A stretch of 64,000 nucleotides of DNA, taken from assembly GCF_900105135.1 (NCBI RefSeq), contig NZ_LT629741.1, forward strand, positions 1,116,001 through 1,180,000, read 5' to 3'. The translations under genes were made by a program, and so were the position numbers. Positions 1 to 19,831 of this stretch are shown in pieces (the first letter of the stretch is position 1; the number at the start of each line of letters is the position of its first letter). This DNA is from Gramella sp. MAR_2010_147. GTDB taxonomy: Bacteria > Bacteroidota > Bacteroidia > Flavobacteriales > Flavobacteriaceae. Under the pieces are notes generated by a model. The model searched no databases, had not been told where the DNA came from, and worked only from the letters and a program-made list of their open reading frames with translations.

Positions 1-2
1 CA

Positions 3-1172
3 CTAAACATTGATGATAAGGGAATCGTTACAATATCTTCTTTACAATCTTTGATAAAAGGTAAAAGAATGACAAATGAAGGATGGAATAAATTAAAAAT
101 AGTATTTGGATACATAAATAGCCATGACACTTCAAAAAGTTATTCTGTAAAACTGTATAATGTCAATCAAATTCATCAATCAGACGGTGCATTGTCTAAA
201 TTTAAATATCAATCTTCAAATTCTCTAATTTCTAAAGCTTTTGATGAAGACATAGAAAATTTAAACTTTAACTCGATAATGTTAAATTCCAATATTGTTT
301 CGCAATGGATTCCAATTACTGGTTTCAAATGGGAGCCAAATGGTTATGAAGACAAAAATTTTAAGGTCAATCAACTATATGAACAGCCTAAAAAAATTGA
401 AGTTTTTAAAAATGCAGATTATAATATCTATATTTTTTTTAGAGCATCTGCTGGATACCCAGTGAAAAGAAATTCCTATATAAGAGAAGAAGTGTTTTTT
501 ATAATCGAGACCGCAAGTTCTTTTGATCTTAAACAACTTTATAAATCAAAGGCTACAATAGAAAGACTGCTAAACATTATTCTATTTGTACCATTTTACT
601 CAACAAATGTTGAATTCAGGTCTTCTACAGGTTCAGATTATATAGATTTAGGTAAAAGTAAAGAGTTATCAATAGGTCGGAGTAATCCGCTAAAATTTAA
701 AGTATTCCAGGAACATTCTCAAGAGATATTCACTAAATGGTTTGAGAAACAAAAGGCATTCGAATTACTAATTAAAAACTTCTTTTCAGTTTTTGGACAA
801 AAAGGGGTTTTGATCGAAAATAAGTTTCTTACATATGTTTCTGTTCTTGAGAATTACCATAAGAATAATGTGAAGAAATCAGCCATTTTAAAAAATAGAT
901 TATTTAATATACTTAAAAATTCCAGTTTTAATGAGAAGATAATTGATATCGATAAGTATGCAGAGAAATTAAAAGTTACAAGAAATTATCATGCACATTT
1001 GGAAGAGAAACATGAAAAGAATTCATTGGATTCAAAGGGAATTTTATATTCAAATAGAATATTGGAAGTAATAATTCACGAAATAATGTTACAAGAATTA
1101 GGCGTTTCGGAATTTAAGATCCCGCAATCAGAAGATAAGATTATTGGTGAATTAAATAAAATTTTGGAGTAA
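3..1172 (+). CDS. ApeA-like HEPN-domain protein (5' end outside window)
   Basis: The reading frame is open to the left edge of the window, so the N-terminus is missing; about 389 residues are visible. The first two thirds resemble the N-terminal domain of ApeA-type proteins (a sugar-binding-like beta region with the WEPNGYEDKNF stretch). The C-terminal third is alpha-helical and holds RNYHAH, an R-x4-H motif as in HEPN ribonucleases. ApeA-type HEPN proteins are known abortive-infection anti-phage effectors, so an RNA-cleaving defence role is inferred. It is the first visible cargo gene of the palindrome-separated array, followed 13 bp later by the first palindrome. The internal TTG and ATG codons near 51-69 lie inside the domain and are not the true start. 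Confidence 0.6.
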   Translation, partial: LNIDDKGIVTISSLQSLIKGKRMTNEGWNKLKIVFGYINSHDTSKSYSVKLYNVNQIHQSDGALSKFKYQSSNSLISKAFDEDIENLNFNSIMLNSNIVSQWIPITGFKWEPNGYEDKNFKVNQLYEQPKKIEVFKNADYNIYIFFRASAGYPVKRNSYIREEVFFIIETASSFDLKQLYKSKATIERLLNIILFVPFYSTNVEFRSSTGSDYIDLGKSKELSIGRSNPLKFKVFQEHSQEIFTKWFEKQKAFELLIKNFFSVFGQKGVLIENKFLTYVSVLENYHKNNVKKSAILKNRLFNILKNSSFNEKIIDIDKYAEKLKVTRNYHAHLEEKHEKNSLDSKGILYSNRILEVIIHEIMLQELGVSEFKIPQSEDKIIGELNKILE

Positions 1173-1185
1173 GACGCCAGCTCCC

Positions 1186-1309
1186 AACATCGGTTATAGC
1201 AAATAGCGGGTATTGCAGAAAAAGTGTAATTTAGAAAACCAGGAAACAAAAGGTTAAGCCGACAAATCCGCGTCCCTATTCCCGCTACTTGTCCATAACC
1301 GTAACCGTT
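1186..1309 (+). repeat. Array palindrome 1 (attC-like, 124 bp)
   Basis: It begins AACATCGGTTATAGCAAATA and ends CATAACCGTAACCGTT. The two ends pair imperfectly (AAC/GTT, CGGTTAT/ATAACCG, TAGCGGG/CCCGCTA) around a central region of about 65 nt that is shared with the other copies. The bases just before it (GCCAGCTCCC) should pair with the start of the first unit, which lies outside the window. The bases just after it (GTTGCCACCA) pair with the end of the next unit. Confidence 0.85.
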
Positions 1310-1323
1310 GCCACCAATTTTAA

Positions 1324-2205
1324 ATGAAGGAAATCACAGAAATTTTTAGAAAATATTCCAATCTCGATTTGTCTGAACATTCAAGATCGGAAATGGAATT
1401 AAATAATTTGATAATTAAATTTTCCAAAGATTTAGGAGAATTAATTGACATTCTATCAAGAGTAATTAATCACGAAAAGCATCCAAATTATTACAATTTA
1501 AACGAATCAACTATTGTAGGTTCGATTACCAGAATTGTCAAATTTTATCAAGAGTATATAAAGTATCAAGAATTGAACAAACTTGAAATTCAGTCATTAT
1601 TCGCAAGACCAATGTATGAATCCTTTATAATTTCAAAATATTTGATAAAAAATGGAACTCAATCTCAACGTAATTTTAGATTAGTTTCTTACAGAGCACG
1701 ATATCAGAATTATAAAAAGTTGATAGAGTTAAATGATAATGACCATCCAATAATAAAGCGTCAATTATTAAAACTAGAAACTAAACTAAAAGTTGATGAG
1801 TTTTCCATTGAGGATTTGGAACAAGAAGACAATAAGTCAAATAACAAAAAATGGAAATTAGATGGAAAATCATTTTGGAAAATACATAGCGAAGTTGATA
1901 ACGCTGACTTATATTCTTTTATTTATGGTGTAGGTTCTGATGCTGTTCACGGAAACTGGCAAGAAATATTTGATTTTCATTTGACGCGTAAAGAAAATGG
2001 ATATTTTGGATTCTTAAATTATGAAAAATGCGATTGTAGAGTGATTGTGCCAATGAACTCTATAGTTATAGAAGGTCTATTAGAATTTTTGAATTGGAAT
2101 GAATGTCTAACAAATGAAATTAAAAACGGACTAGTGAAAATGAATGAAATCAGTAACTCCTTTTATACAATTTGGGAAGAAAAATTTGGAGAAATATTAG
2201 AATAA
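1324..2205 (+). CDS. DUF5677-like protein in array unit 2
   Basis: A 293-residue, mostly alpha-helical soluble protein. The middle resembles DUF5677 (RNFRLVSYRARYQNYKKL, then FIYGVGSDAVHGNWQE near residues 198-213). The S-x-x-V-H-G-x-W pattern is typical of that family, whose function is unknown. There is no signal peptide or membrane segment. The ATG lies only 14 bp after the GTT that ends palindrome 1, so its promoter must be in or before the palindrome. The unit starts GTTGCCACCA and ends TGGTGGCAAC, its private inverted pair. The family assignment is by pattern recognition only. Confidence 0.6.
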   Translation: MKEITEIFRKYSNLDLSEHSRSEMELNNLIIKFSKDLGELIDILSRVINHEKHPNYYNLNESTIVGSITRIVKFYQEYIKYQELNKLEIQSLFARPMYESFIISKYLIKNGTQSQRNFRLVSYRARYQNYKKLIELNDNDHPIIKRQLLKLETKLKVDEFSIEDLEQEDNKSNNKKWKLDGKSFWKIHSEVDNADLYSFIYGVGSDAVHGNWQEIFDFHLTRKENGYFGFLNYEKCDCRVIVPMNSIVIEGLLEFLNWNECLTNEIKNGLVKMNEISNSFYTIWEEKFGEILE

Positions 2206-2216
2206 AAACTGGTGGC

Positions 2217-2341
2217 AACAACGATTCATCGCAAATAGACGGCACCGTTAGTAAGAAAATAATTAAATTCACCAACAAATCAGGTCAAAACCGACAATGC
2301 CGCGTCCCTTACTCCGCCAACTTGCGATAATCGAGACCGTT
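2217..2341 (+). repeat. Array palindrome 2
   Basis: 125 bp. The left arm carries CGATTCATCGC and the right arm GCGATAATCG, where copy 1 has CGGTTAT/ATAACCG: both arms changed together and still pair. The central part is more diverged than in other copies. It is followed by GTTATGCACCATATG, which pairs with the end of unit 3. Confidence 0.8.
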
Positions 2342-2350
2342 ATGCACCAT

Positions 2351-2941
2351 ATGAAAACAGCGATTTCACTTCTAATAATATTAATTTCGAGTCTCGGATT
2401 TTCACAAAATGATAAATCAGATACAATTACTATAAAAGGAATTATTTTTTCAGAAGTTGATGGAAAACCACTTGGAAACGCTTATATAAATTATACTTCA
2501 AAATATAAATATTCAATGACCAACGAAAATGGAAAATTTGAATATAAATACTTAAAAAAGAAAAAGGATTTAAACGAAAAAATAGAAATAAGTGCGCTCG
2601 GATATGAAAAATATGATACAATTATTGACTTAAATAAAGATGACATAATCGACCTATTCGTTGTACTCAAAACAAGATTCGGATTAAACAGACAAAAAGC
2701 TTTAGAAGATATAAATCAAGGCGAAATAAATATTTTACTATCTGGAGGAATTGCTCCTGTTATTTATAAAGGAGACAAAAAATTTACAAAAAAATACCAA
2801 GTCAATTTTATAGAATATGGATGTGAAGCTATCTCTGAAAGAAGTTTAATTGAATACAACCAAACAGTATTTGAATATCTTGACAAGAAATTTGGCGAAA
2901 AATGGCGAAAAGAAATTAGAGATGATGTTTCAGGATTATAA
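2351..2941 (+). CDS. Exported protein with carboxypeptidase-regulatory-like domain (array unit 3)
   Basis: The start is placed at the ATG at 2351, giving a signal peptide (TAISLLIILISSLGFSQ). An upstream extension in the same frame would translate the palindrome (PRPLLRQLA) and is rejected. Residues about 24-108 look like a CarboxypepD_reg-like beta-sandwich (IKGIIFSEVDGKPLGNAYI, then NENGKFEYKY), common in Bacteroidota envelope proteins. The C-terminus, with FEYLDKKFGEKWRKEIRDDV, is a soluble tail of unknown role. About 196 residues; probably periplasmic or surface-associated. The unit is bounded by GTTATGCACCATATG and CATACGGTGCACAAC, 13 of 15 complementary. Confidence 0.6.
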   Translation: MKTAISLLIILISSLGFSQNDKSDTITIKGIIFSEVDGKPLGNAYINYTSKYKYSMTNENGKFEYKYLKKKKDLNEKIEISALGYEKYDTIIDLNKDDIIDLFVVLKTRFGLNRQKALEDINQGEINILLSGGIAPVIYKGDKKFTKKYQVNFIEYGCEAISERSLIEYNQTVFEYLDKKFGEKWRKEIRDDVSGL

Positions 2942-2960
2942 ATACAATCATACGGTGCAC

Positions 2961-3083
2961 AACATCGGTTATAGCAAATAGCGGGTTTTATCGAAAAAGT
3001 GTAATTTAGAAAACCAAGAACAAAAGGTTAATCCGACAAATTCGCGTCCCTACTCCCGCTACTTGTCCATAACCGTAACCGTT
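2961..3083 (+). repeat. Array palindrome 3
   Basis: 123 bp, nearly identical to copy 1 (same AACATCGGTTATAGCAAATA opening and CATAACCGTAACCGTT close). It is followed by GTTGTGCACAATACT, the private start of unit 4. Confidence 0.85.
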
Positions 3084-3101
3084 GTGCACAATACTCACAG
3101 A

Positions 3102-3338
3102 ATGTCGAACAAAGAAGAAATACTGATAATTAGTGATACTGATGAAAGAGATGGGTTAGGAATGGAAGTGTGGCAAAATGATAAATTAGTTCTTGAAATA
3201 TTTAGAGATGATAAATTGAAAAAAAGAACTATAACATTCTATGAGAAAGAAATAGAACTTGGAAAAATGGAGGAATATATTGCAAGATTTAAAATAGAAA
3301 ATCTTTGGGATTTCACAGATCCACTTCCTGATTTTTAA
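3102..3338 (+). CDS. Small hypothetical protein, first gene of array unit 4
   Basis: The start is taken at the ATG at 3102 (MSNKEEILIISDTDERDGLG); an in-frame extension upstream would read through the palindrome. The 78-residue product is acidic, soluble and probably alpha/beta (MEVWQNDKLVLEIFRDD, then KMEEYIARFKIENLWDFTDP). I do not recognise a named family. It resembles the small single-domain proteins often seen in immunity or antitoxin positions, but nothing in the sequence proves this. It lies 16 bp before a second gene in the same unit, so the two probably move and are expressed together. Confidence 0.5.
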   Translation: MSNKEEILIISDTDERDGLGMEVWQNDKLVLEIFRDDKLKKRTITFYEKEIELGKMEEYIARFKIENLWDFTDPLPDF

Positions 3339-3354
3339 ATGAAACTTTCAAATA

Positions 3355-3717
3355 ATGAAAACTTCAACAGCTATAACTCTTTCAATTTTATTTCAGTTTC
3401 TTGGAATATTGATTACTGCTATTATTTTAGAAAATGGTGATATTAATACTATTGGATTAATAGTAGTAATATTCATTTTACCGATAGTTCTAGTTGGATT
3501 TTTAAATGGACTATTACTAAACTTCGCCAAAAAAAGAAAAGGAAATTATAAAAAGAGAATATGGAGTTTTATTCCAATTATAGTTTTAGCCGTTATTGCT
3601 ATTACGAACATTCATTTTCTTGATGGTGATATGGCTTATTTGGGATTAATTGGAGTATTCGCAATTGGAGCAACCAATATTATTTGGAACATAAAATTAA
3701 AACAACAAGTAATCTAA
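3355..3717 (+). CDS. Small integral membrane protein, second gene of array unit 4
   Basis: 120 residues with four hydrophobic segments (about residues 5-25, 31-55, 70-86 and 93-112) separated by short basic loops (KKRKGNYKKR), so an inner-membrane protein with four helices. No family is recognised. It starts 16 bp after the small soluble gene at 3102. The unit ends AGTACTATGCACAAC, 13 of 15 complementary to its start GTTGTGCACAATACT. The pairing of a soluble and a membrane gene in one unit suggests a functional couple; this is inferred only from co-mobilisation. Confidence 0.5.
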   Translation: MKTSTAITLSILFQFLGILITAIILENGDINTIGLIVVIFILPIVLVGFLNGLLLNFAKKRKGNYKKRIWSFIPIIVLAVIAITNIHFLDGDMAYLGLIGVFAIGATNIIWNIKLKQQVI

Positions 3718-3729
3718 AGTACTATGCAC

Positions 3730-3855
3730 AACAGCGGTTCATCTCAAATTCCGGGTATTTGATAAAAAAGAGTAATTTTAGAAACCAACAAAGAAAATGG
3801 TAATCCGACAAGTTCGCGTCCCTACTCCCGCAACTTGCGATAACCGCAAACCGTT
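3730..3855 (+). repeat. Array palindrome 4
   Basis: 126 bp. Left arm AACAGCGGTTCATC, right arm GATAACCGCAAACCGTT: the right arm has changed to CCGC to match GCGG on the left, another paired change. It is followed by GTTGTAGCCAATGCGG. Confidence 0.85.
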
Positions 3856-3968
3856 GTAGCCAATGCGGACATTGAGCATTCAGGTTAAAAACCAAATTTC
3901 TAAACAAGAAAGTTCTCAAGTATAAATTCATAATTTATCTTGCAAAAGCTAGATAAATTTAAACCTCA

Positions 3969-4763
3969 ATGAATAAGTCAATTTTCGAAATTTCAAAAAT
4001 GGATTGTCCTTCAGAAGAAAATCTGATAAGGATGAAATTAGATGAAATCCCTAGTATTAAAAATCTTGATTTCGATATTCCGAATAGAAAATTAACAGTA
4101 TTTCACGAAGGTGAAATTCAATCTATAGAAGAATCATTAAACGGACTAAAATTAGGAACCAAAAAAATTAAGACGGAACAAACCGACCAAACTGAATTCA
4201 AAGAAAATTCTCAACAAAAGAAATTACTTTGGTCTGTACTAGTAATAAATTTTGCATTTTTTATAATAGAAATGACAACTGGCTTAATCTCAAAATCTAT
4301 GGGGTTAGTTGCAGATAGTTTAGATATGCTAGCAGATTCTTTTGTTTATGGAATTAGTCTTTTTGCTGTAGGAGGTTCAATCGTAAAAAAGAAAAAAATT
4401 GCCAATTTAGCTGGTTATTTTCAAATTTTATTAGCGCTAATTGGATTTGCAGAAGTTCTAAGAAGGTTCTTTGGAAATGAAAAACTGCCTGATTTTTCAA
4501 CAATGATAATTGTTTCAATTTTAGCATTAATTGCAAATGGAATTTGTTTATACCTGCTTCAAAAATCTAAAAGTAAAAAGGAAGCTCATATGAAAGCGAG
4601 TATGATTTTCACCTCAAATGATATAATAATAAATGTAGGTGTTATAATTGCTGCTTTACTAGTCAATTGGTTAAATTCAAGTAAACCAGATTTAATTATT
4701 GGAACAATCGTATTCATTCTCGTAATTCAAGGTGCTATAAGAATTTTAAAAATTGGTAGGTAG
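3969..4763 (+). CDS. Cation-efflux (CDF) family transporter with N-terminal HMA-like domain
   Basis: 264 residues. Residues 1-70 form a heavy-metal-associated-like domain with a single-cysteine MDCPSEE motif in place of the CxxC of copper chaperones. Residues about 85-262 hold six hydrophobic helices of a cation diffusion facilitator. The second helix carries DSLDMLADS, the D-x3-D metal site, and the fifth carries SNDIIINVG. The usual CDF cytoplasmic C-terminal domain is missing. It probably exports a divalent metal across the inner membrane; which metal cannot be told. It is the only gene of array unit 5, bounded by GTTGTAGCCAATGCGG and CCGCACTGGCAACAAC, and starts 114 bp after palindrome 4. 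Confidence 0.75.
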   Translation: MNKSIFEISKMDCPSEENLIRMKLDEIPSIKNLDFDIPNRKLTVFHEGEIQSIEESLNGLKLGTKKIKTEQTDQTEFKENSQQKKLLWSVLVINFAFFIIEMTTGLISKSMGLVADSLDMLADSFVYGISLFAVGGSIVKKKKIANLAGYFQILLALIGFAEVLRRFFGNEKLPDFSTMIIVSILALIANGICLYLLQKSKSKKEAHMKASMIFTSNDIIINVGVIIAALLVNWLNSSKPDLIIGTIVFILVIQGAIRILKIGR

Positions 4764-4776
4764 CCGCACTGGCAAC

Positions 4777-4901
4777 AACAACGTATATTCGCAATTGCGG
4801 CAATTGAGCTAAAAGAAAGTTTATAGAAACCAGGAATTAAAAAACTAAATCGGACAAATACGTATCTTCACTACCACAACTGACGAATATACGAGACCGT
4901 T
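4777..4901 (+). repeat. Array palindrome 5
   Basis: 125 bp and the most diverged of the intact copies. Its arms CGTATATTC and GAATATACG still pair perfectly, so pairing rather than sequence has been kept. It is followed by GTTGGCAATAATGAAC. Confidence 0.8.
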
Positions 4902-4924
4902 GGCAATAATGAACAATAATACAA

Positions 4925-6022
4925 ATGACTTTATTCGGAACATCCTTTTATTATATAAGTAATAATCGAGAAATTAATCCATTTGAAAAAAAGATTGAAG
5001 AGTTATTGGTAAGACTTGATTTATATAAAAAGCAATTCAATTTAACTTCTAATTCTTATTTAAAAGAATGGAAAAATGAAAAAATAGAATTAGATAAAAA
5101 TATTAAAGATCAAAAAGTCAAGGCTGAAAAACTTTATAAGGAGGTATACGAATCTGTAAAAGGTGAAGAGTATGCCGAATCTTTAGCCCTTAATAATTCC
5201 GGTCTGGAGGAAATAGATTATCACGAATATGAGAGAAAAGAAGAGATAGATGGCAAGTACAAAGACTTTTTAGACTTTTATGCTAAATCAATTCTAACTT
5301 CCTTGTATTCACTTAACGAAAATAAACTGAATGAGATTTGTGAAGTTGGCTCAGACATTTTTGGAAAGAAAATCAAACCACATCATTTCAATGAAAGAGA
5401 TTACTTAAAATCTTCTTTTACTTATTTAGAACTTGTATTAGAAATATCGACGCACAATTTAGATCCATATTTCAACAAACTGAAAGAAATACAGTTTCTT
5501 AGAAACAAAATAGTTCACGAGAATTCAAAGTTTCAAGATGAAAAAATAAAGGAGATTGTATCTCAAAATCCTTCCCTTCAATTAGAGAACTCAACTGGAT
5601 ATTTGAAGATCATTAAATCTAAGTTTATAAATGATGTTTTTGATTTAATATCAGATTTTTATGAAGAGTTAATTTGGACACTGGATAAAAAACAGAATTA
5701 TAAGATCATTAAAAATGGATTGAAATACTGGTTCGGGGTATTGGATAGAGAAATAGATATAGAAAAACTTGATTGTGAAGAAATAAAGAAAGGTAAACGG
5801 ATTGATTTTGAGATTAACTCAAAAAAAGTCGGATCATTTAAAGGTAAACTAACAATTAAGAAAGCTTCAAAAGCTACCAATTCAATAATTAATCAAAGGG
5901 AAGAACAAGCTTTTAAAAATTTCGTAGAGGATCAAAAAAGTCATTTCTATCAATTATTGGAAGCTTATGCTATATTTAATTTAAAAAAAGAAAATAGAGA
6001 TTTTGAACTAATGATTTACTAG
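4925..6022 (+). CDS. HEPN-like protein with N-terminal coiled coil (array unit 6)
   Basis: 365 residues, soluble. Residues about 18-80 are charged and probably coiled-coil. The central helical region contains FLRNKIVHEN near residues 195-204, an R-x4-H motif as in HEPN ribonucleases. The C-terminal part (residues about 255-365) is mixed alpha/beta and not recognised. The first ATG after the palindrome (4909) is in another frame; the ATG at 4925 opens this frame. The unit is bounded by GTTGGCAATAATGAAC and GTTCACTATTGCCAAC, the clearest private pair of the array. An RNase-type defence or stress function is possible but rests on a single motif. Confidence 0.5.
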   Translation: MTLFGTSFYYISNNREINPFEKKIEELLVRLDLYKKQFNLTSNSYLKEWKNEKIELDKNIKDQKVKAEKLYKEVYESVKGEEYAESLALNNSGLEEIDYHEYERKEEIDGKYKDFLDFYAKSILTSLYSLNENKLNEICEVGSDIFGKKIKPHHFNERDYLKSSFTYLELVLEISTHNLDPYFNKLKEIQFLRNKIVHENSKFQDEKIKEIVSQNPSLQLENSTGYLKIIKSKFINDVFDLISDFYEELIWTLDKKQNYKIIKNGLKYWFGVLDREIDIEKLDCEEIKKGKRIDFEINSKKVGSFKGKLTIKKASKATNSIINQREEQAFKNFVEDQKSHFYQLLEAYAIFNLKKENRDFELMIY

Positions 6023-6034
6023 TTCACTATTGCC

Positions 6035-6159
6035 AACATCGGTTCATCGCAAATAACGGGTATTGTAGAAAAAGTGTAATTTTAGAAACCAGGAAAGAAA
6101 ATGGTTAAGCCGACAAGTCCGCGTCCCTACTCCCGCAACTTGCGATAACCGTAACCGTT
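6035..6159 (+). repeat. Array palindrome 6
   Basis: 125 bp. Left arm AACATCGGTTCATCGCAAATA, right arm TTGCGATAACCGTAACCGTT. It is close to copies 1, 3 and 4 and is the best reference copy for the central region. It is followed by GTTGGCAGCTATTAA. Confidence 0.85.
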
Positions 6160-6231
6160 GGCAGCTATTAAAAAATAAATCGAACTTAAAATTTTAAATT
6201 CGGACTATATTAAATAATAACTCTTTACAGA

Positions 6232-7071
6232 ATGTATGATAATTCACAAGCATATTTTATTGAAAACATCATAATTCCTTTTAAACAATATTTGAAAGAT
6301 AAAAAGAATAAAAAAAGTGGATTTAGTTCCCATTTAAGATCAACAATTAATATCGCTTCAAATCTGTATCATTTAAGAGAGCATATTCCGAATAATAGCG
6401 ATTTAAGTAGAAAGAAATTAGAGGAAATATGTAGTGATTACGCTTTATTAGGTGATGTTGTAAACGCTTCAAAACATAAAATCCTAACAAATAATAATCC
6501 TCAACTTTCAAATTCGGAAAATATATTTGAGATATTAATAGCTACTGAGTACAAAGACAAGGAAGGAAAATACATTGATACGGGAAAATCAGTTTACATA
6601 AAATTAGATAGCGGTCAGGAACGAGATCTACATGAAATTATTATCAATGTAATGAACATGTGGTTGGTAAAACTTGAAGAACTAAAATTAATTGAACATA
6701 TCAAAAGTTTCCCCTATCATAGTACAAGGTTACCTAAAAGGAATAAGAATTCCCGTAAAATGGATTTTTCTGCAATGCAAAATTTACGATTTAATCCTAG
6801 ATTTAAAATTCAAAAATACAATTATGAAACTAAATCTGTGGAACCTATGGATTTAACAGGAGCGACAATAGTTGGAAGAATTTATGAACCTAAATTTATA
6901 ATGGAAATGAAAATTTCTCTAAAGAATGGTAAAGAACATAACCTAGAAATTTCATTGAACCAAACACAAAAAAATAGATTGGATAAAATAAAGGGTGAAA
7001 TTGAAAGACATCAATTTATTCTAAAGCTAGCTGTTGAGCAAAATTTGATCAACATAGAAAAGAATAATTAA
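6232..7071 (+). CDS. Hypothetical protein of array unit 7
   Basis: 279 residues, soluble, lysine-rich. The N-terminal half is helical and contains GDVVNASKHKIL near residues 78-89, a pattern seen in several uncharacterised HEPN-like families, but a clear R-x4-H pair is not evident. The C-terminal half is mixed (YNYETKSVEPMDLTGATIVG). No named family is recognised. The unit is bounded by GTTGGCAGCTATTAA and TTAACAGCAGCCAAC, 13 of 15 complementary. The start ATG is 72 bp after palindrome 6, enough for a small promoter of its own. Confidence 0.45.
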   Translation: MYDNSQAYFIENIIIPFKQYLKDKKNKKSGFSSHLRSTINIASNLYHLREHIPNNSDLSRKKLEEICSDYALLGDVVNASKHKILTNNNPQLSNSENIFEILIATEYKDKEGKYIDTGKSVYIKLDSGQERDLHEIIINVMNMWLVKLEELKLIEHIKSFPYHSTRLPKRNKNSRKMDFSAMQNLRFNPRFKIQKYNYETKSVEPMDLTGATIVGRIYEPKFIMEMKISLKNGKEHNLEISLNQTQKNRLDKIKGEIERHQFILKLAVEQNLINIEKNN

Positions 7072-7079
7072 CAGCAGCC

Positions 7080-7205
7080 AACATCGGTTAAGCGCAAATA
7101 GCGGGCATTCTGGTGAAAAGTGCTATTTTAGTCATCAAGTAAAAAACAACTAAGCCGACAAGAACGTGTCCCTACTCCACGCTACTTGCCTTAACCAAGA
7201 CCGTT
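7080..7205 (+). repeat. Array palindrome 7
   Basis: 126 bp. The arms are CGGTTAAGCGC and GCCTTAACC. Here the AAG/CTT pairs replace the TAT/ATA pairs of copies 1 and 3, again changed on both sides. Copy 8 shares this variant. It is followed by GTTGGCAAGCATT. Confidence 0.85.
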
Positions 7206-7227
7206 GGCAAGCATTAAAAAAACAAAA

Positions 7228-7941
7228 ATGAACAAAATTCACATATTATTATTTTGCCTAATATCGATTACTTCAACTGCACAAACCGAAAATAAGTCTA
7301 AAATTCTAGAGATTGTAGGAAGTGCAGAAATATCAGTAGCTCCAGATATCGGAATCTTAAATATTAATGTTAGTGAAATCGATTTACAATTTGATAAATC
7401 TATAAACAGACTAAATAATAAGTCTAAAGAAATTAGCAACGATCTCAAAGGATTAGGATTTGAAGATTCAGCTATAAGAACTAAAAATTTTGATGTCCGT
7501 AAAAATACATTCTATAGAAATAATAAAAATATAGATAGCGGTTATATAGCCAAACAAGTAATTCAGTTGAAGTTTAAAAATGATGAAAAGAATATTGGTA
7601 AAATTTTAAAACAATTCTCAAAAAGTAACTCAGAATTTGATTTAAACTTCGATTTCCAGTTATCTGATTCTTTAAAAGATAATATTCAAAAGAAAATTAT
7701 AAAGTTAGCCACAGAAGACGCTTTCAATAAAGCAAAATTAATAAGTTCAACCGCAAAAATTATCTTGACAGAAATAAAGGAAATAAATTATGGAAGAAAT
7801 TTTGATGGAGAAATGTTATTGTTGAGAAAAAATAATTCTCTTGGTTACTCCACAAAAAGAGAAAGTTCACTTTTAGAGGGGTTTACTCCAACGGAAATTA
7901 CATATTCAGATAAAATAAGAGTTATTTGGAATATAAAATAA
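7228..7941 (+). CDS. SIMPL (DUF541) domain exported protein (array unit 8)
   Basis: The start is placed at the ATG at 7228, giving a signal peptide (NKIHILLFCLISITSTAQ) and a 237-residue protein; translation from further upstream would begin in the palindrome. The mature part matches the SIMPL/DUF541 pattern: EIVGSAEISVAPDIGILNINV at the start of the domain, a middle with alternating strands and helices, and a closing strand (DKIRVIWNIK). Such proteins are periplasmic or outer-membrane associated and form oligomeric rings in some bacteria; the role is poorly known. The unit is bounded by GTTGGCAAGCATT and AACGCTTGCCAAC, 12 of 13 complementary, which helps place the left border of the following IS element. 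Confidence 0.75.
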   Translation: MNKIHILLFCLISITSTAQTENKSKILEIVGSAEISVAPDIGILNINVSEIDLQFDKSINRLNNKSKEISNDLKGLGFEDSAIRTKNFDVRKNTFYRNNKNIDSGYIAKQVIQLKFKNDEKNIGKILKQFSKSNSEFDLNFDFQLSDSLKDNIQKKIIKLATEDAFNKAKLISSTAKIILTEIKEINYGRNFDGEMLLLRKNNSLGYSTKRESSLLEGFTPTEITYSDKIRVIWNIK

Positions 7942-7980
7942 CGCTTGCCAACAAAGAACTAAGGTAAAATCCAAGTACTT

Positions 7981-8985
7981 TTAAGCTAATTTCGACATAT
8001 AATTTTCCTGGTAATAGGTTCTTGATTTAGCAATTGCAAATGCTTGTTTTAGGAGCTTATTACACACAGCAATCAGTGCCAGTTTCTTACTCTTCCCTTT
8101 CTCTACTATTCGCTCATATAATTCCCTGCATGCCTTATTAGTCTTGCAGGCTGTAAAGCTACACATGAACAATAAATTACGCAGTTTTCGGTTTCCAACC
8201 TTGCTAATTCTGCTTCTACCTCTAACACTGGTTCCAGACTGTCTGATGGTTGGAGTGATTCCGGCATAACAACAAAGTTGTCTGGCGTTCTCAAAACCAG
8301 TAAATCCATCTGTAAGTACAATCAATAGCATCGCGGTCTTCTTCCCCATGCCTGGAATGCTAGTTAGTTGCTCCAATTGATCTTGCTGCGTTTCTTTTAC
8401 TAAGGTCTCCAGCTTGGTTTCAATCTTTGCTAATTCTTTCTCTAACTGCTTCAACATTCGATTTAAAGAACGACTGATTGTTTTCGAAGGGGTTCCCAAA
8501 GTTTTCTCTCCATGTATTTTATTCTTGACGGCAGTACGCTGTTTCAGGTAAAGATCCTGTAGACTCAAGAGTTGCAAGCATTCGGCCTGAACTGCATTTC
8601 TTGCTGTATATAATGGAACTTCATTCGCCTGGGCATACTCACATATTGCTTTCGCATCGCTCTTATCAGTCTTGATCTTAGAGAGCTTCATTTGAATAAA
8701 ACGCTTTACCGAAAGTGGATTCACAACCGATACTGTGATATCTTTCTCATAGAGATGTTGAGCTAGCCTGTAATGGTAATAACCGGTTGCTTCCATAACT
8801 ACCAAGCTATCTTTTTTAATAGCTTTTAGGAAGCTTTTAAAGCCTTTTACATCATTTGAAAATTGATCATGCTTTCCGTCCTGATCAACTACATCAAAGA
8901 AAGATTTACTAATGTCTACTCCGTAAAAATGTTTAATTTTATCCATAACAGATTGATTGGAAAGAACAGCTACTTTGGTTTTCAT
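7981..8985 (-). CDS. IS110-family DEDD transposase
   Basis: 334 residues, full length. The N-terminal RuvC-like DEDD domain shows D24 (YGVDISK), E65 (VVMEATGYY), D107 and D110 (KTDKSDAKA). The C-terminal transposase_20 domain has LTSIPGMGKKTAMLL near residue 207 and the catalytic serine region RQSGTSVRG near residues 248-256. All key residues are present, so the enzyme looks active. It is a bridge-RNA-guided recombinase by family knowledge. It lies opposite in orientation to the cassette genes. An internal ATG at codon 14 is an alternative start, but the first methionine gives the usual N-terminal length. Confidence 0.9.
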   Translation of the reverse strand: MKTKVAVLSNQSVMDKIKHFYGVDISKSFFDVVDQDGKHDQFSNDVKGFKSFLKAIKKDSLVVMEATGYYHYRLAQHLYEKDITVSVVNPLSVKRFIQMKLSKIKTDKSDAKAICEYAQANEVPLYTARNAVQAECLQLLSLQDLYLKQRTAVKNKIHGEKTLGTPSKTISRSLNRMLKQLEKELAKIETKLETLVKETQQDQLEQLTSIPGMGKKTAMLLIVLTDGFTGFENARQLCCYAGITPTIRQSGTSVRGRSRISKVGNRKLRNLLFMCSFTACKTNKACRELYERIVEKGKSKKLALIAVCNKLLKQAFAIAKSRTYYQENYMSKLA

Positions 8986-9155
8986 CGACTTAAAAACGAG
9001 ATCCAGGTCTCACAGAACTAAACGAAATTAAAGTAGAAAAGAGAGGGGATTATCAATGTTGACGGAATCTGAAGTTCCCACGGTTAATATAATCTTATTC
9101 CTCTCTTTGGTTCTTTCTGATTTAACTATCAAAATTTAGAGAAATTAAACTTAAG
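8986..9155 (-). ncRNA. Candidate IS110 bridge RNA region
   Basis: The noncoding stretch of about 170 bp upstream of the transposase start is where IS110-group elements encode their bridge RNA. It contains short complementary tracts (CCAAAGAGAGGAATAAG and CCCCTCTCTTTTC on the minus strand) that could form a stem. I cannot assign donor or target loops by eye. Confidence 0.35.
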
Positions 9156-9274
9156 ACGATTAAGCGCAAATAGCGGGCTTAGTCGAAAAAGTGTATTTTA
9201 GACACCAAGTAAAATACAACAAAGCCGACAAGAATGTGTTCCCTACTCCACGCCATTTACCTTAACCAAGACCG

Positions 9275-9969
9275 TTGGCAATAATACTTAAACAGAGAAT
9301 TGAATTGCAAAATAGATATTATCAATTATCAAAAAAGAAAAAAAGGAACTTCTATATTAAACTGACTGTAATATTTCTGGTGATTCTAATTCCTTTTTGT
9401 TATATATCTTTTTATTTCAATATTTATTTTCTTGCGCCAGTTATTTTCTGGATTCTGCTTTCAATTACTGCTCCATTTTTCGATATGCCGTCGATGATTA
9501 AAAATGGAAAATTACAGTACGAATCATCGCTGCTAATTTCAGAAAAAGAAAAAACAACAAGATTACAATTCATGGAGGATCATTATTTGACTATTACTTT
9601 GTATTGAATAGATACGATAAAGGAAGTATTAGAAGAAATTTAATTCTTTTAGAATATCTAAATGGTATCCTCAAGATAATTGAATCAAATGACGAAAACC
9701 CAAATTTGGAAATAATAGGTACTACTTATATACTAAACGAGAGAACGGCGAATAAAATTGGCTTCAAGGTGCAAAAAACGAATACAACTCAACTTATCAT
9801 CCTAATTCTAAATTATCCAAATCTAGTTTCCACGAAATCTTTTGCTCACAAAAAAGTATCCTTTCCAAACCTAAAAAATATTAAAACATATAAGTCTAGC
9901 ATCAAAGAATTAACTGAAAATAAGCAGAGAATTAATAAAATTAGAAATACAATACAAAGTACTATTTAA
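9275..9969 (+). pseudogene. Frameshifted two-helix membrane protein gene (array unit 9)
   Basis: Two overlapping frames together make one protein of about 230 residues. The first part (to about 9568) has two membrane helices (LTVIFLVILIPFCYISFYF and FLAPVIFWILLSITA) and ends its homologous stretch at KEKTTRLQ. The second frame continues as HGGSLFDYYFVLNRYDKG from 9571. One base appears to be missing near 9569-9571; restoring it gives the continuous LQ-x-HGG-x-LFDYYF segment. No in-frame ATG is found near the start; only TTG codons (9275, on the palindrome's GTT, or 9305) are available, so the start may be lost too. A sequencing error is possible. The function is unknown. Confidence 0.55.
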
Positions 9970-10063
9970 TCGAAAATGTGTGTTTTTTGAAACCAGGAAA
10001 GAAAATGATTAATCCGACAAGTCCGCGTCCCTACTCTGCGAATTTAAAATAACCGAAACCGTT
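9967..10063 (+). repeat. Array palindrome 9, left arm deleted
   Basis: It begins inside the element (AATCGAAAATGTGTG) directly after AAAGTACTATT, the remains of the closing private sequence of unit 9 (expected TTAAGTATTATTGCCAAC). The right part is intact up to AATAACCGAAACCGTT at 10063. About 30 bp, including the whole left arm, are missing, so this site could no longer fold. Confidence 0.75.
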
Positions 10064-10115
10064 ACCTCTCATTTTATGAAATAGTTTCGTATTTTTAAGC
10101 GAAAGAAACTACTAA

Positions 10116-11303
10116 ATGAACAACAATTTAAGTATTGATCTTCAGGAAGATGTACAAAACATTTCTCAAATTTCTTCCATTCCTTCAATGCTGAATGTAA
10201 TTTGTCGCACTACCGGAATGAGATTCGCAGCCGTTGCAAGGGTTACAGACAAAAAATGGGTGACATGTTTATCTCAGGATGAAATCGATTTCGGACTTAA
10301 ACCGGGAGATGAATTAGAATTACAAACAACTATTTGTAATGAAATTCGGCAACATACAGAGCCTGTCGTCATTGACAATGTTCCAGAAAATAAGAAATAT
10401 TGTAATCACCATACGCCAGCAAAATACGGGTTTAAAAGCTATATTTCTTTTCCTATTTTCCGTAAAGATGGAAGCTTCTTCGGTACTTTATGTGCAATAG
10501 ACCCAGAGCCTGCAAAACTGGAAAATCAACAAACCTATGAATTATTCCAGCTTTATACAGAATTAATATCTTTTCATTTAGAAACTATTGAGGAATTAAA
10601 GAATACAAATCAAACTCTTCTAGAAGAGAAAAAGAATGCAAAACTGAGGGAAACCTTCATTGCTATTCTTGGTCACGATCTTCGAAATCCATTAACCACT
10701 ACAAGATTATGTTCAGACATTCTTTTGAAAATGGAAATAGATGATAATGCTAAAAAATATGTTGGCACCATAAAATCAACATCTTTAAGAATGCAAGAGT
10801 TAATTGATAATGTCTTAGATTTTGCCAAAGGTGAATTAGGAGAAGGCATTTCTCTGGTTTTCACAGAAGATAATGACAAACTGAAAAAAGAACTGAAGCA
10901 GATAATTAAAGAAACTGAAACAACAGATTTATCTCATAAAATAGTTTCTTCAATAGATTTAGATCATCCAGTTAAATGCGATAGTAATAGAATAGGGCAA
11001 TTGTTTTCGAATTTGCTTAGCAATGCGGTTAAACATGGACACGATTCCACACCAATTTATATTAATTCTACTACAACCAAAGAGCAGTTCATTCTAGAAG
11101 TGATTAATTCTTCAGATACTATTCCATCGGATATTTTGAATGATATTTTTAAGCCATTTACATCAATTAGTTCCGTAAATAATGTAAATGGACTTGGTTT
11201 AGGTTTGTATATAGCTTCAGAAATCGCTAAAGCACACAATGGTAAGATAGATGTTATTTCAGATAATAATAAAACTACTTTTAAATTTAGGATGCCTATA
11301 TAA
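10116..11303 (+). CDS. GAF-domain sensor histidine kinase
   Basis: 395 residues, no membrane segments, so cytoplasmic. Residues about 18-160 form a GAF domain (TGMRFAAVARVTDKKWVTCL, then KSYISFPIFRKDGSFFGTLC). It is followed by a short linker helix, a HisKA H-box with H187 (ILGHDLRNPL), the N-box of the HATPase (NRIGQLFSNLLSNAVKHG) and the G2-box (GLGLGLYIASEIAKAH). All catalytic boxes are intact. There is no response regulator next to it, so the partner is elsewhere. It starts 53 bp after palindrome 9 and may have been an array unit once, since a decayed palindrome-like stretch follows it near 11.35 kb; this is uncertain. Confidence 0.9.
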   Translation: MNNNLSIDLQEDVQNISQISSIPSMLNVICRTTGMRFAAVARVTDKKWVTCLSQDEIDFGLKPGDELELQTTICNEIRQHTEPVVIDNVPENKKYCNHHTPAKYGFKSYISFPIFRKDGSFFGTLCAIDPEPAKLENQQTYELFQLYTELISFHLETIEELKNTNQTLLEEKKNAKLRETFIAILGHDLRNPLTTTRLCSDILLKMEIDDNAKKYVGTIKSTSLRMQELIDNVLDFAKGELGEGISLVFTEDNDKLKKELKQIIKETETTDLSHKIVSSIDLDHPVKCDSNRIGQLFSNLLSNAVKHGHDSTPIYINSTTTKEQFILEVINSSDTIPSDILNDIFKPFTSISSVNNVNGLGLGLYIASEIAKAHNGKIDVISDNNKTTFKFRMPI

Positions 11304-11347
11304 GCCTATCGGTAAAATTAATTGCTTAGAGAAAGCAGCAATTGCCG

Positions 11348-11440
11348 GAATAGACTGAATATCTAACGGGAATACTATAAACTTTCAATGAATTCTGTAA
11401 TGCTTACTCCGTCGACAAGTCTTGAATAAAACTTAAGACA
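11348..11440 (+). repeat. Possible decayed array palindrome
   Basis: The stretch contains TCTAACGGGAATACTATAAA, then CCGTCGACAAGTCTTG. These match in order and spacing the palindrome segments AATAACGGGTATTGTAGAAA and CCGACAAGTCCGC. The arms are not recognisable. The match is short and could be chance. Confidence 0.3.
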
Positions 11441-11452
11441 AGGAATGTATGA

Positions 11453-11809
11453 TCAGTCAGAATAATTTACAGCCACAAAATCCCCCCAATCGGCAATAGA
11501 TTGAATCAAAGGAATTAAGGTTCCACCAAAGTCTGTTAAGGAATATTCTACTTTTAGAGGTGGCTTTGAAGTATAGACCTTGCGTTTAATCAATCCGTCT
11601 TCCTCCAGTGCCTTTAATTGCAAGCTTAAAGTTCTTTCGGTAACAGTAGGCATTTCTTTTCTTAACTCATTATATCGAAGCGTTTTATTAATTAAATGAT
11701 ATAAAATTACCGTTTTCCATTTGCCACCAATAATTCCCATGGTCAGGCTTGCACAACAAGGGTACTCACTACCTTTAAACTTCAATTTTTTAGGCTCTTT
11801 TGCTTCCAT
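11453..11809 (-). CDS. HxlR-family winged-helix regulator
   Basis: 118 residues of the usual HxlR size. It shows the family pattern: C-C near the N-terminus (YPCCASLTMGIIGGKWK), then the winged helix (ILYHLINKTLRYNELRKEM, TERTLSLQLKALEEDGLI) and the wing and closing helix (PLKVEYSLTDFGGTLIPLIQ). The Cys pair may sense thiol-reactive electrophiles or quinones, as in several HxlR/YodB-type proteins. It is divergent from the quinone-reductase operon starting at 11906, and the shared intergenic region carries three ACTATAC half-sites, so it probably represses both itself and that operon. Confidence 0.9.
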   Translation of the reverse strand: MEAKEPKKLKFKGSEYPCCASLTMGIIGGKWKTVILYHLINKTLRYNELRKEMPTVTERTLSLQLKALEEDGLIKRKVYTSKPPLKVEYSLTDFGGTLIPLIQSIADWGDFVAVNYSD

Positions 11810-11812
11810 AAA

Positions 11813-11887
11813 ACTATACTATCCTTTTTGACCGTTATTGCAAAGATAGATAACTATACATAAGTTTGCAACTATAAAAAGTATAGT
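11813..11887. promoter_or_regulatory. HxlR operator region with three ACTATAC half-sites
   Basis: ACTATAC occurs at 11813-11819 and 11853-11859, and its reverse complement GTATAGT at 11881-11887. A partial copy (AACTATAA) sits at 11870. The 11853/11881 pair forms an inverted repeat just upstream of the operon start, and the 11813 copy lies right at the regulator start codon. The layout fits repression of both divergent promoters by the HxlR protein. Confidence 0.6.
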
Positions 11888-11905
11888 AATTAAAATAAGT
11901 ATATT

Positions 11906-12892
11906 ATGAAAGCAATGTTATTGAAAAAGTATGGGGAAAATTCAAAATTTGAACCAGGACAGGTTGAAAAACCATCTTTAGATGAGAATCAGGTTTTAAT
12001 TAAAATTTCAGCATCCAGTGTTAACACTGTAGATACAATGATAAAAAATATGGGAGAAGATCTTCCCTTTTCACCTGAACCTCCGGCTATTCTGGGAATG
12101 GACTTTGCCGGTACTGTTGAGTCAGTTGGCAAAAATGTATCCAACTTTTCTATTGGAGATGAAGTTTATGGGTGTGCAGGTGGTCTGGGAGATTTACAGG
12201 GAACTTTAGCTGAATATATTGCGGCTGACAGCAGATTGATTGCTCATAAACCTAAGAATATTACAATGCGTGAAGCAGCCGCCATACCTTTAGTAGGTAT
12301 TACAGCTTACGAAGGTCTAACTCGTGCAAATGTTCAAAAAGGAAATAGTGTATTGGTGCATGGCGGTGCTGGAGGTGTTGGTCACTTAGCAGTTCAATTA
12401 GCCAGACATTTTGGAGCAAAAGTTTCAGCAACAGGTAGTGGCGAAAAGCAGATGAAAATTATTCAGGGCTATGGTGCGACCTCCATTGATTATACCACAG
12501 AAGATGTTGAATCCTACGTGAAAAAACATACAGATGGAAATGGTTTTGATGTTGTGTTTGATACTGTTGGCGGTGAAAACCTGAAAAATTCATTCGAAGC
12601 AGCGGCCTTGAACGCACAAATTTCTACAACAGTTTCATTACTGGAACTTGATCTATCACCGGTTCATTTTAAAGGTTTAACGCTTCATGTGGTGTTTATG
12701 CTCATTCCAATGATACATAATTTTAAAAGAGAGAATCACGGTAAAATCTTAAGCGAATTGACTAAAATCATAGAAGCTGGAGCAGTAAAGCCTTTACTTG
12801 ATGAACAAAAATTTTCAATGGAAGAGGTTGGAGAAGCTTACGCACATCTTACAAGCGGAAAAGCTACAGGAAAAGTGGTGGTGGAAAACTAA
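11906..12892 (+). CDS. NADPH:quinone reductase-like medium-chain dehydrogenase
   Basis: 328 residues of the zinc-independent MDR/quinone oxidoreductase group. The N-terminal GroES-like domain has GMDFAGTVESVGKNV (about residues 70-84). The Rossmann domain carries the AxxGxxG-type motif HGGAGGVGHLAVQLA near residues 151-165. The zinc-binding cysteines of alcohol dehydrogenases are absent. It probably reduces quinones or enones with NADPH. It is the first gene of a three-gene operon (10-bp and 2-bp gaps to the next genes) divergent from an HxlR regulator, which fits an electrophile-response operon. Confidence 0.9.
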   Translation: MKAMLLKKYGENSKFEPGQVEKPSLDENQVLIKISASSVNTVDTMIKNMGEDLPFSPEPPAILGMDFAGTVESVGKNVSNFSIGDEVYGCAGGLGDLQGTLAEYIAADSRLIAHKPKNITMREAAAIPLVGITAYEGLTRANVQKGNSVLVHGGAGGVGHLAVQLARHFGAKVSATGSGEKQMKIIQGYGATSIDYTTEDVESYVKKHTDGNGFDVVFDTVGGENLKNSFEAAALNAQISTTVSLLELDLSPVHFKGLTLHVVFMLIPMIHNFKRENHGKILSELTKIIEAGAVKPLLDEQKFSMEEVGEAYAHLTSGKATGKVVVEN

Positions 12893-19490: not shown

Positions 19491-19707
19491 CCTGTCTATT
19501 TTAAAACGATTAAAATTATAGGACAAAGGTAGGGTGCAAGTAAGCTTAACTTCTTATACAAATTTTCGAATGTTATATACATTTTGGTTTATGTAGAAAG
19601 TGTCGAAATCATTAAATAGTTAATATGAATAATACATCCCCCTTCAAAATATACAATCAATTTTACTATTTGATCAAAATTTTAAAATGTGTTACTACTG
19701 TGTATAA
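19491..19707. other. Intergenic region upstream of the SDR operon
   Basis: It presumably holds the promoter of the minus-strand SDR-MBL-AraC operon. There is an AT-rich stretch around 19550-19690 but no operator or promoter that I can assign with confidence. Confidence 0.4.
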
Positions 19708-19831
19708 TATCCGTTCATCGAAAATAACGGGTTTTATATAAAAAGTGTAATTTTGGAAACCAGGAACCAAAAGAGTTAATCCTGCAAGCCGGCGGCTCTA
19801 CTCCCGCAACTTGCCTTTACTAAGTCCTGGT
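19708..19831 (+). repeat. Diverged array palindrome 10
   Basis: It carries CCGTTCATCGAAAATAACGG near the left and CTCCCGCAACTTGCCTTTAC near the right, with the conserved centre (AAAAAGTGTAATTTTGGAAA, CCAGGAACCAAAAG) between. The outer AAC/GTT are lost. It opens a unit with the cupin gene at 19884; GTACGC just right of it is mirrored by GCGTAC at 20413, a trace of the private pair. Confidence 0.75.

What the first reader, a model, noticed from the sequence alone, without database searches (positions are those of the whole stretch)
1186..10063. Integron-like cassette array with unusually long private inverted termini
Seven consecutive units between the AAC...GTT palindromes (2 to 8) each start with a 12-18 nt sequence that is the reverse complement of their own end, for example GTTGGCAATAATGAAC / GTTCACTATTGCCAAC and GTTGCCACCA / TGGTGGCAAC. 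The sequences differ from unit to unit but match within a unit. Complementarity that belongs to the unit rather than to the repeat is what excision as a circle predicts: the two ends meet across the palindrome and lengthen its stem. Classical integron cassettes show this only over about 6-7 bp. The array is in a Bacteroidota genome and no integron integrase is seen, so either the integrase lies off the left edge or a different enzyme is used.
Basis: partly seen in the sequence, partly recalled or inferred. Interest (0 to 1): 0.9.

Follow-up and report, generated by a model that had tools for sequence, protein, structure and literature searches.

The report
Integron-like cassette arrays without IntI
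Some Bacteroidota carry long arrays of swappable single-gene cassettes laid out like integrons, but the neighbouring enzyme is not the usual integron integrase, and each cassette carries its own long matching ends with a fixed mispair that may tell the enzyme which DNA strand to use.

Summary
The window holds the tail of a 23 kb cassette array that starts beside a tyrosine recombinase gene ending 13.5 kb left of the window. Each of the 20 intact units between repeats of this array, and 512 of 549 units in 15 related genomes, has ends complementary over about 16 nt; position 11 is an A.C mispair (a G.T wobble on the bottom strand) in 524 of 549. In a small control (44 units of classical IntI arrays) pairing fades after 9-10 nt. 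In 60 of 60 usable pairs of near-identical cassettes the neighbours differ on both sides, and the core after the gene travels with it, so the mobile unit is gene plus attC-like site with exchange at GTT, as in integrons. An attI-like GTT stands 27 nt behind the recombinase stop codon in 12 of 12 genomes tested. The recombinase lacks the IntI-specific insert, lies outside the IntI clade, is nearest to XerA-type enzymes and has an extra N-terminal domain. I call it a new, IntI-independent variant of the integron. Activity and strand folding are inferred, not shown.

The parts
1..1188 (+). end of unit 0 (begins at genome 1115888, left of the window); gene 51-1172 with a HEPN_Apea domain
1186..1309 (+). 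attC-like site R1 (AAC...GTT)
1307..2219 (+). unit 1, DUF5677 gene; private ends GTTGCCACCA / TGGTGGCAAC
2217..2341 (+). attC-like site R2
2339..2963 (+). unit 2, CarbopepD_reg_2 protein
2961..3083 (+). attC-like site R3
3081..3732 (+). unit 3, two small ORFs without Pfam match
3730..3855 (+). attC-like site R4
3853..4779 (+). unit 4, cation efflux protein
4777..4901 (+). attC-like site R5 (lowest score among the intact sites of the window)
4899..6037 (+). unit 5, 365-aa protein without Pfam match; ends GTTGGCAATAATGAAC / GTTCACTATTGCCAAC
6035..6159 (+). attC-like site R6
6157..7082 (+). unit 6, 279-aa protein without Pfam match
7080..7205 (+). attC-like site R7
7203..7952 (+). unit 7, SIMPL (DUF541) protein
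7953..9154 (-). IS110-family element (transposase ORF 7981-8985) inserted in the left arm of site R8; ends approximate
9153..9276 (+). remainder of attC-like site R8
9274..9945 (+). unit 8; no matching end found, the left arm of R9 is missing
9946..10063 (+). degenerate attC-like site R9, right end of the array

Best explanation
This is the distal part of a chromosomal integron-type platform run by a recombinase that is not IntI. Anatomy (shown): tyrosine recombinase gene; an attI-like GATATAAC-NN-GTT with 27 nt between stop codon and GTT; then cassettes, each a body (usually one gene) plus a site of about 125 nt, nearly all read in one direction. Mechanism (inferred): the recombinase recognises the bottom strand of the site folded as a hairpin. 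Private ends and AAC/GTT form an R arm of about 16 bp; an unpaired spacer, an L arm with an extrahelical base and a large loop follow. It exchanges one strand at GTT with attI (insertion) or another site (excision as a circle). Since the R arm is made of the unit's own two ends, it forms locally only in the free circle (or by looping out the whole cassette), which favours circles as substrates. The A.C on top is a G.T wobble on the bottom strand, so the bottom strand folds better; this may set strand choice and hence cassette orientation, a task in which IntI's insert takes part (recalled) and which this enzyme lacks.
For: Polarity: 627 of 627 sites lie on one strand within their stretch, and of 549 units 487 have the longest ORF that way, 18 the other way, 44 no ORF of 60 aa. 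Recombinase: 23 of 24 genus genomes carry sites (E <= 0.01) and the same 23 carry one ortholog (E <= 1e-60); the one with neither is 67% complete. attI: GATATAAC-NN-GTT at the same distance in 12 of 12 genus stretches that hold the recombinase; in 9 of 12 that GTT was found blind as the start matching the end of the first intact core; AAC-NN-GTT within 70 nt of the stop in 12 of 20 other genera. Mobile unit: 60 usable pairs of cassettes at 93% identity or more (37 within, 23 between genomes; 88 distinct units) all have unlike neighbours; right core 0.926, left core 0.773, random cores 0.780; right above left in 55 of 60. Pairing is under selection: 118 double changes kept pairing, 57 did not; control positions 10 against 162. 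Core structure: 89.2% of cells paired, covariation score reached by 0 of 500 shuffles. In 120 of 549 units sampled, the circle-form bottom strand folds at -27.9 kcal/mol, top -23.3, linear -19.7; bottom better than top in 118 of 120.
Against: No reads, no circles, no biochemistry: activity and single-strand use are not shown. The recombinase is nearest to XerA-type enzymes, whose known dif-type sites are double-stranded (recalled), so a double-strand mode stays open. In 5 of 60 pairs the left core is more alike than the right. Pairs and units are not independent; 158 of 549 units come from one genome. In 3 of 12 genomes matching the first intact core points to a start 482, 631 or 3581 nt downstream instead. 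37 of 549 units pair at under 9 of 12 positions. For the core, two covariation measures are weak: 7 pairs with double changes (20 of 500 shuffles reach this) and further pair types (211 of 500). That no site lies upstream of the recombinase rests on only 0.2-1.4 kb in 11 of 12 stretches, 21 kb in the own genome. AAC/GTT was part of how I defined sites.
Confidence: 0.84

Rival explanations
1. Ordinary integron: the sites are attC and a normal IntI elsewhere in the genome, or a degenerate IntI next door, works them.
For: Sites have the attC plan (AAC/GTT ends, unpaired spacer, extrahelical base in the L'' arm, 123-127 nt). IntI genes are common elsewhere in Bacteroidota (105 of 394 genomes over cut-off). 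IntI is the second-best NCBIfam profile.
Against: G000 has no TIGR02249 match at E <= 1e-70, and none of the 106 genomes with one is of the window's family or order (how many of that family were sampled is not given). The neighbour scores 181 bits against a cut-off of 265, lacks 42-43 columns that IntI shares and lies outside the IntI clade (100/100).
Confidence: 0.06
2. Units are shuffled only by homologous recombination between the similar cores; the private ends are fossils or serve something else.
For: Cores are on average 0.78 identical over about 120 nt, so such exchange is expected; 5 of 60 pairs have a better left core.
Against: The right core moves with the unit and the left does not in 55 of 60 pairs; private pairing is kept by double changes; recombinase and attI-like site stand at one end in each of 12 stretches tested.
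Confidence: 0.06
3. Units are small transposons and the private ends are terminal inverted repeats that pair with the whole unit as the loop.
For: In the linear array start and end of a unit are inverted repeats; pairing in the circle and pairing across the unit cannot be told apart by sequence.
Against: End sequences differ from unit to unit, which a sequence-reading transposase could not use; units stack head to tail with the core between them and behind one attI-like site; the core travels with one side.
Confidence: 0.04

Closest known systems
Chromosomal (super)integron with IntI
   Same: Recombinase at one end, attI next to it, polar array of varied cassettes, site bounded by AAC and GTT with spacer, L arm with extrahelical base and long loop, exchange at GTT, pairing of a cassette's own ends
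   Different: Recombinase without the IntI insert and outside the IntI clade, with an extra N-terminal domain of about 80 aa; private pairing of about 16 nt with an A.C at position 11 instead of 7-11 nt; attI-like site 3' of the recombinase gene in 12 of 12 genus stretches
Integrons with intI reading towards the cassettes (layout recalled as a known variant)
   Same: Recombinase gene and array on one strand, array downstream of the gene; most candidate sites in the 80 IntI loci fetched here also lie on that side
   Different: Those carry true IntI and the short private pairing
XerA / XerCD recombinases with dif
   Same: Best profile, sequence and fold matches of the catalytic half (NF040815 214.5 bits; 4a8e and 5hxy)
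   Different: dif is one double-stranded site per chromosome (recalled); here up to 172 hairpin-forming sites and an extra N-terminal domain; the genome has its own XerD (L001, over cut-off) and a XerC-like gene (L003, under cut-off)
IS1111-attC insertion sequences
   Same: IS110/IS1111-type elements that insert at a fixed place in the recombination site (PMC11187229, passages seen)
   Different: Here two lineages, each at one arm of a non-IntI site: 9 of 9 at the left end, 25 of 25 at the right end

Membership tests
Integron (IntI type) | IntI integrase with the IntI-specific additional domain (called defining in PMC9668308, passage seen) | tested here: not met
   TIGR02249 181.3 bits, cut-off 265; 43 alignment columns present in all 12 IntI and in none of 14 members of the window enzyme's group, 42 in the wider set
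Integron (IntI type) | recombinase belongs to the IntI clade | tested here: not met
   16 IntI form a clan (100/100), 23 members of the window enzyme's group another (99.8/100); their relation is unresolved (46.8/29); the IntI come from two searches with one profile and one alignment
Integron (IntI type) | attC plan: AAC/GTT ends, unpaired spacer, L arm with extrahelical base on the L'' side, 57-142 nt | tested here: met
   plan taken from PMC2727003
Integron (IntI type) | attI beside the recombinase where the first cassette begins | tested here: met
   same place in 12 of 12, blind recovery 9 of 12; function not tested
Integron (IntI type) | cassette = gene plus its attC, mobile as one unit, one orientation | tested here: met
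Integron (IntI type) | recombination of the folded bottom strand only | not testable with these tools
   folding energies favour it, no assay
Integron (IntI type) | sites recognised by IntegronFinder's attC model | not tested
   program not available; Rfam search of window 1-12000 gave no attC match
XerA recombinase | score over the curated NF040815 cut-off | tested here: not met
   214.5 bits, cut-off 220; the model is not specific, the genome's own XerD scores 230
XerA recombinase | catalytic residues R, K, H-x-x-R, H, Y | tested here: met
   R219, K244, H308, R311, H334, Y343 invariant in 36 sequences (roles recalled)
XerA recombinase | resolves dimers at a single dif | not tested
   the genome has separate XerD and XerC-like genes

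The most novel reading that the evidence does not exclude
A second, IntI-independent kind of integron, possibly an independent invention of cassette capture by folded DNA from a Xer-type recombinase. It occurs in several Bacteroidota families, with at least two attI types. Lacking IntI's insert, it reads strand polarity from a longer, cassette-private arm with a fixed wobble, perhaps through a new N-terminal domain.
Probability: 0.48. Interest if true: 0.95.

Novelty: new variant of a known kind. Interest (0 to 1): 0.87.

Why it matters
Integrons are defined by IntI and searched for by IntI and attC models; one survey names a single complete integron in Bacteroidetes proper, in Salinibacter ruber, besides In0 elements (PMC9024848, passage seen). 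If this holds, a large cassette reservoir (up to 172 sites over 187 kb in one genome) has been overlooked or filed as integrase-less. The fixed wobble and private arms make an open question testable: how a recombinase chooses strand and site without IntI's insert. Two recombinase lineages on one site plan would also test whether folded-DNA recombination arose once or twice.

Tried and rejected
IntI as the enzyme: rejected. A known RNA family in Rfam over window 1-12000: none (one chance-level hit at 2747-2785).

Unit 8 looked like an exception; it was a missed repeat. Classical control: Bacteroidota IntI neighbourhoods (9 of 14 stretches searched for repeats) gave no usable arrays, so I used 80 IntI loci from genome contigs. 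Counting repeats was insensitive; a first stem finder mishandled bulges and was replaced. The control stays small: 44 units from 19 of 80 loci at the loosest threshold, 10 of 44 pairing over GTT only, so false sites are probably among them.

N-terminal domain (residues 1-80): its single-sequence model (pLDDT 72.9) gave no Foldseek match at E <= 0.001; five archaeal XPB chains are among the first eight (E 0.19-0.37), and the full model had one weak hit of that kind (2fz4, E 0.31). Pfam HARP hit 1 of 36 relatives at E 0.033. A lead only. VIA-align rows lie almost wholly in residues 70-373, which excludes nothing.

'Nearest to XerA' is weaker than it first looked: the XerA profile also takes the genome's XerD (230 bits). 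The distant relatives at 35-40% identity are not shown to be one clade.

Literature: ten searches of open-licence PMC listed no paper that I recognised as describing this system; apart from the nine opened I judged by listings. Subscription papers and preprints are not covered. Nine papers were seen as passages; none was read whole. PMC8138268 says the insert is 'not fully conserved' in its integron-like recombinase subgroup, so relatives of this enzyme may have been grouped there before.
Full report
WHERE. The window is G000:C1:1116001-1180000 of a 3,158,483-bp single-contig genome. The named proteins nearest to its recombinase are from Christiangramia/Gramella. G007 has the contig length, 3,798,465, given for the C. 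forsetii protein P0001, so I take it to be that species.

OBSERVATION. Confirmed and extended. The repeats run from genome 1103453 to 1126063, that is from 12.5 kb left of the window to window 10063. A covariance model of 19 cores (R1) finds 30 copies in the genome: 22 in this array, one degenerate copy 9.6 kb beyond it (window 19706-19828), six at 2973795-2978530 and one at 2248785. The core folds with 22 pairs, 89.2% of cells paired, 20-42% when slid; the covariation score is reached by 0 of 500 shuffles, the number of pairs with double changes (7) by 20, further pair types by 211.

PRIVATE ENDS. Own array. Genus: 627 sites (nhmmer) in 849 kb from 15 genomes gave 549 units, 158 of them from G018; 78 sites open no unit because the next is missing, broken, too far or off the stretch. 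Own match against re-dealt ends: positions 4-9, 0.86-0.98 against 0.27-0.55; 10, 0.61 against 0.38; 11, 0.01; 12-15, 0.85-0.96 against 0.33-0.66; 16, 0.69 against 0.34; 17, 0.50 against 0.31; background from 19. Position 11 is A at the start and C at the end in 524 of 549. Mean 10.56 of 12 matches against 4.70; 512 of 549 reach 9, 37 do not. Control on classical IntI loci: 44 units from 19 of 80 loci, own match 0.64, 0.52, 0.32 at positions 8, 9, 10, then background.

SELECTION ON PAIRING. Among 186 pairs of related, non-identical cassettes, 118 paired positions changed on both sides and stayed paired, 24 changed at the start only, 28 at the end only, 5 on both sides without pairing; at control positions 19-28 the numbers are 10 against 162. 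Pairs are not independent; one change can be counted several times.

MOBILITY. 192 unit pairs align over at least 85% of the longer unit. Of 62 at 93% identity or more, 2 were dropped because a flank ran off the stretch. The other 60 (37 within, 23 between genomes; 88 distinct units) all have neighbours under 75% alike on both sides, for example own unit 1105819-1106667 and one in G014, 98.4%. Right core 0.926, left core 0.773, random cores 0.780. So the unit is body plus the core after it, and the exchange lies at or near the GTT. Five pairs go the other way.

attI. GATATAAC-NN-GTT stands behind the stop codon with 27 nt before the GTT in 12 of 12 genus stretches that hold the recombinase. 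In 9 of 12, looking only for the start that matches the end of the first intact core points to this GTT; the others give 482, 631 and 3581 nt. In the own genome this makes a further cassette, between attI and the first repeat. In 20 other genera AAC-NN-GTT (TATAAC in each, by eye) lies within 70 nt of the stop in 12; of the 8 without, 5 have recombinases at 35-37% identity. Those have another sequence there, with a short inverted repeat before the first GTT in several (by eye).

BREADTH. A search for private ends alone, ignoring cores, in 20 other genera found 91 candidates, 68 with A/C at position 11; base-shuffled sequence gave 25, 1 of them so. Genera differ: G120 gave none, and G042, G130 and G142 none with the A/C sign. 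In 11 further stretches, nine of them from other families, 36 candidates, 24 with the sign (7 of 7 in G227); three shuffles gave 15 candidates, 0 with it.

IS ELEMENTS. Of 34 IS110-family transposase hits of at least 200 aa in the genus arrays (one shorter hit dropped), 9 of the window's lineage (85-100% identical) adjoin a site whose left end is not intact (4 of these also lack the right end), and 25 of a second lineage (30-33%) adjoin a site whose right end is not intact. Two IS110-type lineages thus target these sites, as IS1111-attC elements target attC.

CONTENT. Many cassette genes have no Pfam match; others carry HEPN, SIR2-like, SIMPL, cation efflux, DUF5677, DUF5694, beta-lactamase-family (PF00144), ArsR-type, short-chain dehydrogenase and beta-propeller domains.

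JUDGEMENT. It works like an integron. I do not file it as an IntI-type integron, because the IntI features were tested and not met. I rate it a new variant of a known kind; two independent origins of the same trick remain possible and untested. On checking I lowered confidence slightly (0.85 to 0.84, novel case 0.50 to 0.48) because of the loose XerA profile and the uneven sampling.

Noticed in passing
window 7953-9154; G007, G018, G006, G017, G023, G019, G015 arrays: Two IS110-family lineages insert at opposite ends of the attC-like sites, 9 of 9 on the left and 25 of 25 on the right.
   Followed up: partly
L010:3352-3591 (recombinase residues 1-80): Extra N-terminal domain without Pfam match in the own protein; weak likeness to the XPB N-terminal domain and, in one relative, to HARP.
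   Followed up: partly
G000:C1:2973795-2978530 and 2248785; window 19706-19828: Further copies of the site away from the main array; the single one at 2248785 lies 3.4 kb from another tyrosine recombinase.
   Followed up: no
L164, L165, L172-L174, L180-L189: More distant recombinases (35-40% identity), several outside the family, most with private ends of the same design nearby and another sequence behind the stop codon.
   Followed up: partly
G018:C1:2188001-2388000: 172 sites over 187 kb in one genome, with near-identical cassettes repeated at distant places.
   Followed up: yes
L079-L158: In these IntI loci most candidate attC sites lie downstream of intI (0.30 per kb against 0.03 upstream at the loosest threshold), the reverse of the clinical integron layout as I recall it.
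   Followed up: no
window 51-1172; L010:13681-15054: Cassettes with defence-like genes: HEPN_Apea (PADLOC PDC-S58, Cas13-ApeA) and SIR2-like (PDC-S25, ThsA).
   Followed up: no
G000:C1:2456-2959 and 3153377-3153880 (L003, L004): XerC-like proteins of the same length (296 aa) are encoded near both ends of the contig; the 3504-bp surroundings agree at 2904 positions. Duplication or assembly overlap.
   Followed up: no
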